Positions 57,513 to 60,429 of a stretch of 64,000 bases of DNA are shown one piece after another. Numbering within the stretch: position 1 is the first letter of the stretch; each line of letters begins with the position of its first letter. The notes under the pieces were generated by a model. The model did no database searches. It was given only the letters and a program-made list of their open reading frames with translations, and was not told the origin of the DNA. Origin of the DNA: a virus; IMG/VR virus record IMGVR_UViG_3300032288_004617, positions 19,541 through 83,540 of that record. The stretch is one strand, 5' to 3'. Made by a program: the position numbers and the translations under genes.

Positions 57513-57687
57513 GGAAATGAAAGCCATCTACGAAGATTTATCATCTTCAGGTGACTTATTAGATATGTTTCCAACTTTAACAGGAAATTGGAAAGAAGAT
57601 AAAAGAGATTTTAAAGAATTGTATAATCAAGTTAGTAATTCTTTTGGTACAGATTTTAACATATATTTTGGAGATGAAGAATATTAA
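57502..57687 (+). CDS. Small acidic protein overlapping phosphoesterase start
   Basis: This 61-residue protein starts at the ATG at 57502 (MGAKEMKAIYEDL), overlapping the preceding gene by 11 bp and the next by 14 bp. It is acidic and helical (KEDKRDFKELYNQV). No family is recognised. Confidence 0.55.
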   Translation: MGAKEMKAIYEDLSSSGDLLDMFPTLTGNWKEDKRDFKELYNQVSNSFGTDFNIYFGDEEY

Positions 57688-58996
57688 CATTAAAGAGTTT
57701 TTAGAGAGTAAAAGAGAAGAGTTGTTTAATATCTATGAAGATATGTCAAACATCGCTAAATCAGCTAGAAAGTTGTGTGAGCAATATGGGGTTGAGTACA
57801 CAGAATCTTTTAGGGCATGTGCATCTAAGATTATAAATAGTGACAGAACGTTTGAGAATATATCTGAAACTGAAACTAATCAATATAAAGATGATTCAAA
57901 TCCTGTATCAGTTTTATCTGCCTTAAGAACAGATGGATCTATAATGAATATTACAGAGTATTGTGAAACATATAATTTACCTTATGACCAGGTTAAGAGT
58001 TATAAATTAGTTACACACACTGGTAAAGGTGCTTATTATAATATTGCTAGTAATAATGTTTCTACTTCTTTTGATCTGGAAGAAGAGAAGACTTCAATTG
58101 AGCAATCTTTAAGAGATATCGTCTCAAGAATTGGCATTAATCCTTCTAAAAGCTTATATAAAGAGAACACTGTTTTAAATGATGAATTCTTTGATAGACT
58201 TGTATTTACAGATGTTCATATCAACTTAGATCCAAATGGTGATGGAAGCCCTCTGTATGGAGGTATTTATGATAAGGCCGAGATATTAAGAAGATTGGAT
58301 GAAATGGTATCTTATGTTAGACAAGAGCAAGTGTCAACAGTACTGTATATTGATGAGCTTGGAGACTTTATGGATGGATATAAACAAGCTACAACTAGAA
58401 ATTCAGGCCACTCACTTCCTCAATTAACAAATGATAAGGATGCCTTTGATTTAGGTGTTGAATTTAAAATTTCATTGATAAATAAATTATTACCATTCTA
58501 TAAAAAGATTGTATGTAATAATGTTACAAATGATAACCATTCAGGAGATTTCTCATACTTTGTAAACATGGCTGCAAAAGGTGTATTGGAAACACTATAT
58601 CCAGATCAAGTTGAATACAATGTAATAAATAAATTCTTTTATCACTACTCTATTGGATGTCATACATTTGTTGCATCACATGGTAAGGATACAAAAGATA
58701 TGAAGCATGGTATGAAACCAACATTAGATTCTTCAGCAAAAGAAAAGATTGATCAATACTGTAAACATCATGGGTTATATAATGGTAATTATATAGAATT
58801 TAGCAAAGGAGATTCACATCAAGCTATTTTTGATGAATCTACAAGTAGCGATTTTAGCTATTACTCGTATCCTGCATTCTCTCCTCCAAGTGCTTGGGTA
58901 CAAACAAACTTTGGACTATCTAGATCTGGATTTAGATTCTTCAATATAAGTAAAGTTAGAAATCAAAAAATTACTCATCCGTATTATTTTAATTAA
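57674..58996 (+). CDS. Metallophosphoesterase with N-terminal extension
   Basis: This is a 440-residue protein from the ATG at 57674. The second half has the calcineurin-like metal-binding set: FTDVHI (D180, H182), GDFMDG (Asp231), TNDNHSG (Asn288-His289) and FVASHGKD (His336). Residues 1-150 are a helical, perhaps winged-helix, DNA-binding-like extension (SIMNITEYCETYNLPYDQVK resembles such a fold). Relatives include SbcD/Mre11-type nucleases and phage phosphatases; the context of recombination genes suggests a nucleic acid substrate. Confidence 0.8.
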   Translation: MKNINIKEFLESKREELFNIYEDMSNIAKSARKLCEQYGVEYTESFRACASKIINSDRTFENISETETNQYKDDSNPVSVLSALRTDGSIMNITEYCETYNLPYDQVKSYKLVTHTGKGAYYNIASNNVSTSFDLEEEKTSIEQSLRDIVSRIGINPSKSLYKENTVLNDEFFDRLVFTDVHINLDPNGDGSPLYGGIYDKAEILRRLDEMVSYVRQEQVSTVLYIDELGDFMDGYKQATTRNSGHSLPQLTNDKDAFDLGVEFKISLINKLLPFYKKIVCNNVTNDNHSGDFSYFVNMAAKGVLETLYPDQVEYNVINKFFYHYSIGCHTFVASHGKDTKDMKHGMKPTLDSSAKEKIDQYCKHHGLYNGNYIEFSKGDSHQAIFDESTSSDFSYYSYPAFSPPSAWVQTNFGLSRSGFRFFNISKVRNQKITHPYYFN

Positions 58997-58997
58997 T

Positions 58998-59594
58998 ATG
59001 AAAAGACCTGATGAATTGTCATATACGGTAGAAGAATTAAACCAAGAAGTCTGGAAAGATATACCAGGCTTCGAAGGTTTTTATCAAGCTAGTAACTTAG
59101 GAAGATTTAGATCTTTGCCTAGAGTTATAGTCAGAAGCAATGGTATTACTGAAAATAAACCTGGTCGTATTCTTAAGAATAATTACTACTCTAATGGGTA
59201 CGTCCAATTAATACTTTATGTAGATAAGGTTAGGACTAACTTTATAGCTCATAGAGTAATTGCTGAAATGTTTGTAGCTAATCCTTATAATAAAGATACT
59301 GTAAATCATAAAAATGGAATTAAAAATGATTTAAGGGAGCATAACTTAGAATGGTGTACTAGGTCTGAGAATAATTACCATGCTTACAAAATAGGTTTAT
59401 CAAAAGCTAATCCTAAAAAAGGAGAAGATAGTAGTAGAACAAAACTTACAAACTTAGAAGCTTTAGAGATTAGACAAACTTATAAACCTGGAAAATTTAA
59501 TAAAACCATTTTTGAGAAGTATAGAGATAAGATATCAAAAAGTGGATTTAATAGTATAGCAAGAGGAGAATCTTGGAAACATCTTACAAATTAA
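58998..59594 (+). CDS. NUMOD4-HNH homing endonuclease
   Basis: This is a 198-residue protein. The NUMOD4 DNA-binding motif (EVWKDIPGFEGFYQASNLGR) starts at residue 17. The HNH_3 core shows FIAHRVIAEMFV, then TVNHKNGIKNDLREHNLEWC. A C-terminal helix-turn-helix-like part follows. Free-standing homing endonucleases of this type cut intronless alleles and spread. It begins one base after the phosphoesterase gene, so the operon may have been invaded here. Confidence 0.93.
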   Translation: MKRPDELSYTVEELNQEVWKDIPGFEGFYQASNLGRFRSLPRVIVRSNGITENKPGRILKNNYYSNGYVQLILYVDKVRTNFIAHRVIAEMFVANPYNKDTVNHKNGIKNDLREHNLEWCTRSENNYHAYKIGLSKANPKKGEDSSRTKLTNLEALEIRQTYKPGKFNKTIFEKYRDKISKSGFNSIARGESWKHLTN

Positions 59595-59619: not shown

Positions 59620-60429
59620 ATGAAGACATTGATTATTTCATTTGTCCTACTTATCAACTGTAGCTTGGCCCAATTTTGTGGGCCTTCTACTTTTGTAGGA
59701 CTTTTGTCACCTAATAATACAGATCAAATTACACCTGCTACAGGAAATGGTCTTAGACCTTATTGGAAATTTAAAGCTTTTGCAGGATGTACTTATACAT
59801 TTCAAACTTGTGGACTAACTTCTACAGATACAGAGTTAGAATTAATGTCCACTAGTGCTTTAGATTTTAATGATGACTACTGTTCTCTACAATCTTATAT
59901 CAGTTGGAAATGTCTTGTAGATGGGACTTACATAATCTTTCTGACAAGATATAGAAGTGGTACATGTAAAGTATTAAATCAAGATGTCTCTTTAAAGTAT
60001 AAAACAGATTGTGTCATTCTTCCAATAGAGTTAGCTTCATTCACTGTTAGAAATGAAAATGGTTCAAACTTACTGAAATGGACCACCTACTCTGAGGATC
60101 GATCAGATTATTTTTCTGTCGAAAGATATGATGGTTTTTGGGAATCTATTGTAAATGTAGATGCAGCAGGATATTCTCACCACACATTGAATTACAGCTA
60201 CTTAGATAATACTTTTAGCAATGGATGTGTAAATTACTACAGACTTAGAATGGTTGATATTAATGGAGAAGATAAAATATCCGATATTGAGTCAATAGAT
60301 AATACAGAAATATCAGAACATCTAGTAAAAGTTGTAAACTTGGAAGGAAAAGAAGTGAATATGAATGAAAAAGGGGTACTTATACTTATATATTCAACCG
60401 GAACAACAAAAATAATTTATAATTTATAA
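59620..60429 (+). CDS. Secreted protein with type IX-like C-terminal sorting domain
   Basis: This is a 269-residue protein with four parts. A signal peptide ends at SLA (residues 1-17). Residues ~20-131 are Cys-rich, with FCGPSTFVGLLSP, CTYTFQTCG and SWKCLVDGTYIIFLTRYRSG, a layout typical of the PPC-like adhesion or coat domains of Bacteroidota. Residues ~134-226 (LPIELASFTV, LLKWTTYSEDRSDYFSVERY, YYRLRMVDINGEDK) are the Fn3-like segment found before sorting domains. Residues 233-269 (VKVVNLEGKEVNMNEKG, VLILIYSTGTTKIIYN) look like a type A sorting domain. A phage protein shipped to the host surface by the host's own secretion system is implied; exclusion of other phages is one idea. Confidence 0.7.
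   Translation: MKTLIISFVLLINCSLAQFCGPSTFVGLLSPNNTDQITPATGNGLRPYWKFKAFAGCTYTFQTCGLTSTDTELELMSTSALDFNDDYCSLQSYISWKCLVDGTYIIFLTRYRSGTCKVLNQDVSLKYKTDCVILPIELASFTVRNENGSNLLKWTTYSEDRSDYFSVERYDGFWESIVNVDAAGYSHHTLNYSYLDNTFSNGCVNYYRLRMVDINGEDKISDIESIDNTEISEHLVKVVNLEGKEVNMNEKGVLILIYSTGTTKIIYNL

What the first reader, a model, noticed from the sequence alone, without database searches (positions are those of the whole stretch)
59620..60429. Phage-borne secreted protein built like a type IX secretion cargo
A 269-residue protein in the replication block has a signal peptide, a Cys-rich PPC-like domain, an Fn3-like segment and a C-terminal stretch like the type A sorting domain of Bacteroidota. These features are read in the sequence; type IX cargo logic is established knowledge. 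If real, the phage would use the host's own outer-surface secretion route, perhaps to block other phages or alter adhesion. I know of no described phage gene of this kind.
Basis: partly seen in the sequence, partly recalled or inferred. Interest (0 to 1): 0.85.

Follow-up and report, generated by a model that had tools for sequence, protein, structure and literature searches.

The report
Phage surface protein with mini T9SS tag
This phage gene encodes a secreted protein ending in a 45-residue tag that hundreds of other Bacteroidota phage contigs also carry; the tag looks like a shortened version of the address label their hosts use to send proteins to the outside of the cell, so these phages probably decorate or arm the surface of the cells they infect.

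Summary
The ORF (59620-60429, 269 aa) is real, under purifying selection (dN/dS 0.13 against a sister contig), and lies in a phage related to Cellulophaga phage phi17:2. It has a signal peptide obeying the Bacteroidetes Q-rule, a Cys-rich N-domain (weakly PPC-like), a high-confidence Fn3-like domain and a ~45-residue C-terminal tail.

The tail is nevertheless a recurrent C-terminal tag. An IMG/VR scan gave 247 related places. In the 80 kept, it sits at the extreme C-terminus behind variable N-parts; 74 of 76 proteins with an intact 5' end look signal-peptide-bearing. Profile comparison links it to the last part of the type A CTD (60-85%; shuffles at most 14%). It is rare in bacteria (2 of 395 genomes); three tail-bearing genomes checked have SprA.

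Best reading: cargo sent through the host type IX system by a compact CTD variant. Phage T9SS cargo was already described (Cryophage 2020; crAss-BACON phages 2019); the compact, unmodelled, phage-enriched tag is the new part. Type IX export and surface function remain inferred.

The parts
59620..60429 (+). Gene for the 269-aa secreted protein (P0001), stop included
   Evidence: identical in contig L001, 86% identical over 213 aa in L002; dN/dS 0.13
59620..59670 (+). Signal peptide, residues 1-17, cleavage A17|Q18 (Q-rule)
   Evidence: sequence; same K/R + hydrophobic + Q pattern in 69 of 76 relatives; Q-rule PMC5837995
59671..60012 (+). Cys-rich N-terminal domain, residues 18-131, found at the mature N-terminus of other phage and Bacteroidota proteins
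   Evidence: 36% identity to a 2676-aa Bacteroidota ORF; phage relatives L102-L109; PPC hits in two homologues; low AF2 confidence
60016..60279 (+). Fn3-like domain 'LPIEL..W.T.SE..YYRL..VD.NG', residues 133-220
60292..60426 (+). Compact C-terminal tag, residues 225-269, SIDN..LVK.VNLEGKEVN...KG...IYSTGTTK
58998..59594 (+). NUMOD4/HNH homing-type endonuclease gene directly upstream; absent from sister contig L002, where the cargo gene follows the phosphoesterase gene directly. Neighbour, not part of the cargo protein

Best explanation
A phage-encoded cargo protein for the host's type IX secretion system (T9SS). It is made during infection, exported by Sec and cut before Q18 (inferred from sequence). 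It is then carried across the outer membrane by the host T9SS, which recognises a compact ~45-residue C-terminal tag: a shortened CTD variant that keeps stretches matching the conserved G-x-V strand, the G...Y strand (motif D-like) and the final basic strand (motif E-like), and lacks the N-terminal YPNP (motif A) half (route inferred). The Cys-rich domain is thereby displayed on, or released from, the infected cell. The most likely benefit is altering the cell surface, for example masking receptors against competing phages or changing adhesion (inferred, perhaps 35%). The tag is shared by a large phage gene family with varied N-terminal parts. Shown: the gene, architecture, conservation, C-terminal position, spread and profile relation. 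Inferred: T9SS export and function.
For: Spread: 247 related places in IMG/VR; 26 of 46 contigs tested encode a T4-type Gp23 capsid protein. Position: all 60 non-redundant tail hits end within 8 residues of the stop, and 54 of 57 have an SP-like start, against 176 of 978 background ORFs. Modularity: in 56 proteins the C-terminal parts form one BLAST cluster and the N-parts 12; three bacterial proteins carry the tail without the Fn3 motif. CTD relation: hhalign 80.2%, 60.1% with a larger set, shuffles at most 14%, 64-85% combined, Fn3 and N-domain controls at most 0.2%. The same Fn3 domain precedes full-length CTDs (87-120 residues) in bacteria and short tails in phages. Three tail-bearing bacterial genomes have SprA. 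Basic residue in the last 10 positions of 55 of 55 tails. [quoted passage not shown] motif E lysines are needed (PMC10202324). Some phages of this set also carry full type A CTDs.
Against: No TIGR04183/PF18962 hit for P0001; one of nine relatives reaches only E=0.45. Tail-only model: three strands, no significant PDB match. A five-sequence phage-only tail set gave only 17% in hhalign. Host unknown, and no protein-level data. All relatives are uncultured metagenome contigs.
Confidence: 0.68

Rival explanations
1. The protein is Sec-exported but stays in the periplasm (or leaves by another route), and the tail is an ordinary C-terminal structural extension of the Fn3 domain rather than an export tag.
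For: No curated CTD model matches; the tail is predicted as a small meander next to Fn3; nearly all phage members have the Fn3 motif before the tail.
Against: The tail occurs without the Fn3 motif in bacterial LRR-like proteins; the same Fn3 is followed by full CTDs in bacteria; it is always at the very C-terminus; profile relation to the CTD.
Confidence: 0.18
2. A virion structural protein (Fn3-type decoration or fibre).
For: Fn3 domains are common on virions (own knowledge); several relatives lie next to the capsid gene gp23.
Against: Signal peptides in 74 of 76 relatives would take the protein out of the cytoplasm where virions are built; in the window it lies among nucleotide-metabolism genes, away from the structural genes.
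Confidence: 0.07
3. A recently captured host gene with no phage-specific role.
For: The detectable cellular relatives found by name are Bacteroidota, Ignavibacteria or unclassified bacteria.
Against: Purifying selection; phage Fn3 sequences group together (Fitch changes 3 against 12 or more in shuffles; midpoint root and biased sampling); tail rare in bacteria.
Confidence: 0.05

Closest known systems
Cryophage T9SS cargo (Bellas et al. 2020, PMC7468147)
   Same: Phage-encoded proteins proposed to use the host T9SS; cargo genes vary; superinfection exclusion suggested there.
   Different: Cryophage cargos carry type A sorting domains and are two enzymes and a PA14 protein; here the tag is a compact unmodelled variant, in a phi17:2-like phage and many T4-type or huge phages. 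Their text calls it a unique occurrence; it is not.
Type A T9SS CTD (TIGR04183 / PF18962)
   Same: C-terminal position, Sec signal peptide, profile similarity in the C-terminal half, terminal basic residues.
   Different: About 45 residues instead of about 72, no YPNP motif A (0 of 78), below model thresholds, no seven-strand sandwich predicted.
crAss-BACON cluster 2 phages (de Jonge et al. 2019, PMC6949934)
   Same: T9SS sorting-domain proteins noted in Bacteroidetes phages.
   Different: Linked to BACON carbohydrate-binding repeats; a compact tag is not described in the passages read.
Type C CTD (ChiA, NF033708)
   Same: Another non-A/B T9SS signal.
   Different: NF033708 did not match P0001 or the nine relatives in A10 at E<=10.

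Membership tests
Type A T9SS sorting domain (TIGR04183/PF18962) | Match to the curated model above cut-off | tested here: not met
   No hit at E<=10 for P0001; none at E<=1 in the record
Type A T9SS sorting domain (TIGR04183/PF18962) | Seven-strand Ig-like beta-sandwich | tested here: not met
   Tail model has three strands
Type A T9SS sorting domain (TIGR04183/PF18962) | Motif A (YPNP-like) | tested here: not met
   0 of 78 family members have PNP in the last 120 aa
Type A T9SS sorting domain (TIGR04183/PF18962) | Homology of the C-terminal half | tested here: met
   hhalign 60-85% against full CTDs, negative controls at most 14%; remote homology only
T9SS cargo (functional class) | Sec signal peptide | tested here: met
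   Rule-based, no SignalP; 74 of 76 relatives SP-like
T9SS cargo (functional class) | Export tag at the extreme C-terminus | tested here: met
   60 of 60 within 8 residues of the stop; that the tag exports is inferred
T9SS cargo (functional class) | Organism has a T9SS | tested here: inconclusive
   Tail-bearing bacteria G003, G004, G006 have SprA; the window phage's host is unknown, related phages infect Cellulophaga
T9SS cargo (functional class) | T9SS-dependent appearance outside the cell | not testable with these tools
   Needs an experiment
PPC domain (PF04151) | Match to model | tested here: inconclusive
   P0001 no; two homologues yes, best E=0.007

The most novel reading that the evidence does not exclude
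Large aquatic-type Bacteroidota phages share a dedicated, compact T9SS export tag of about 45 residues, absent from Pfam, NCBIfam and PHROGs and rare in bacteria. They append it to interchangeable cargos to control the surface or surroundings of the infected cell. It would be a natural minimal CTD.
Probability: 0.55. Interest if true: 0.78.

Novelty: new variant of a known kind. Interest (0 to 1): 0.62.

Why it matters
If true, use of the host's type IX system is a common phage trait rather than a single oddity, and standard annotation misses it because the tag falls below every curated model tried. The tag would also be a natural test of which part of a CTD is enough for export, a question opened by the HBP35 22-residue result. 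It gives a one-profile way to list phage proteins that may act outside the host cell.

Tried and rejected
TIGR04183/PF18962/NCBIfam/Pfam/PHROG scans of P0001: nothing. PDB sequence search: only chance hits. Genome scan with P0001 alone: nothing. The first alignment meant for AF2 misplaced the N-terminal fragments (A6) and was replaced by A7. Foldseek of the whole model is dominated by Fn3 matches in the PDB, and the tail-only model has no significant PDB match. The first small tail model (A3) gave 1 of 296 genomes; the larger one gave 2 of 395. Own-genus and whole-file searches were not possible for a virus record. Considered and rejected: lipoprotein (LINC has N at -1, and the conserved cut is before Q18); host contamination (a T4-type capsid gene on 26 of 46 contigs). 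No cultured phage with the tail was found: phi17:2, phi19:1 and phi46:3 lack it, and protein searches of the phage collection hit only huge uncultured phages.

Full report
Setting. The window is part of an 83.5-kb virus record. Its terminase, portal and virion genes match PHROG phage families, and its terminase is nearest to Cellulophaga phages phi17:2 and phi4:1, about 39% identity. The gene at 59620-60429 follows a RecA/UvsX, PhoH and phosphoesterase run and precedes GroES and thymidylate synthase genes. A contig with an identical protein (L001) and a sister contig (L002, 86% protein identity over 213 residues) carry it. In L002 it follows the phosphoesterase gene directly; the HNH gene at 58998-59594 is extra in the window. 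Over 213 codons dN/dS is 0.13; the N-domain has dN 0.134 and the Fn3 part 0.047.

Architecture. Signal-peptide-like residues 1-17 end at A|Q, as the Bacteroidetes Q-rule predicts (PMC5837995). Residues 18-131 form a Cys-rich domain that matches the mature N-terminus of a Bacteroidota protein (36%) and of phage proteins L102-L109; two homologues reach the Pfam PPC model, best E=0.007. Residues 133-220 are Fn3-like; 83 of 198 sampled genomes of the phylum encode something similar to P0001, mostly to this segment, and AF2 gives about 90 pLDDT for 141-220. Residues 225-269 are the tail, predicted confidently as three strands.

The named test. TIGR04183 and PF18962 do not match at E<=10, and no sandwich is predicted.

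What the tail is. In annotated phage records the relatives are four huge uncultured phages (462-642 kb); all four also encode proteins above the TIGR04183 cut-off. A scan with Fn3+tail found 247 related places in IMG/VR. Among the 80 kept, the stretch from the YYRL motif to the stop is 49-59 residues in 75 of 77 measurable cases. The other two, L125 and this protein, read 97, most likely because the pattern matched earlier; their last 45 residues align normally. Bacterial Fn3 proteins from my loci have 87-120 residues in 36 of 38 cases, and 53 in two short-tail cases. A tail model over 3977 viral ORFs gave 60 non-redundant hits, all within 8 residues of the stop, 54 of 57 with an SP-like start against 18% background. 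Leaving this protein out of the model, it still scores E=4.6e-15. N-parts fall into 12 BLAST clusters, C-parts into one. No member of the set tested matches a PHROG convincingly.

Relation to the T9SS CTD. Profile-profile comparison gives 80.2%, 60.1% with 47 phage tails against 36 CTDs, and 64-85% with bacterial tails added. Column shuffles stay at or below about 14%, and Fn3 and N-domain controls at 0.2% or less. A five-sequence phage subset gave only 17%, so this is remote homology. The aligned part is the second half of the CTD. In the literature the last 22 residues of HBP35, motifs D and E, suffice to export GFP, and motif E lysines matter (PMC10202324; also PMC11285876).

Distribution. 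With the phage-built model, 2 of 395 sampled genomes of the phylum of G003 have the tail; with a broader model that includes bacterial tails, 8 of 36 genomes of the order of G003 do. Three of these (G003, G004, G006) carry SprA. Three bacterial LRR-like proteins have the tail without the Fn3 motif. In an Fn3 tree the phage copies group together, with 3 label changes against at least 12 in shuffles. This rests on midpoint rooting, an 80-100-residue domain and a sample drawn by similarity to phage members.

Mechanism. Sec export then T9SS export is inferred from the above. Surface masking or adhesion change is one plausible benefit; release of the cargo is another. Nothing here tests it.

Novelty. 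Phage T9SS cargo was published in 2020 (PMC7468147), which called it a unique occurrence, and T9SS-sorting-domain proteins in crAss-BACON phages in 2019 (PMC6949934). I found no description of the compact tag in nine searches of an open-licence library, which does not hold most subscription papers.

Noticed in passing
window 57644-58996 vs L002:4708-5997: The phrog_22398/phosphoesterase-like gene shares its first ~150 residues with the sister contig but has an unrelated C-terminal part; the HNH gene next to it is absent there, which suggests an exchange of gene segments.
   Followed up: no
L105:1018-7935 (229-kb contig; TIGR04183 hits also in the 142-kb and 62.9-kb contigs): Five consecutive secreted-type genes next to the gp23 capsid gene: an S8 subtilase with SprB repeats and a full type A CTD, a SprB protein with a CTD, a SprB protein, and two short-tail proteins.
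   Followed up: partly
L003:4691-6369 (LR745206.1): The huge-phage homologue appears split by a frameshift between its N-terminal part and the Fn3+tail part; assembly error or decay not resolved.
   Followed up: no
L005:3583-4656 (LR756500.1): The PhoH-like protein looks as if it holds an intein-like insertion just before its TGKT motif (read by eye).
   Followed up: no
L200, L201, L204: Bacterial proteins, LRR-like by eye, carry the short tail without the Fn3 motif, showing the tail is separable.
   Followed up: partly
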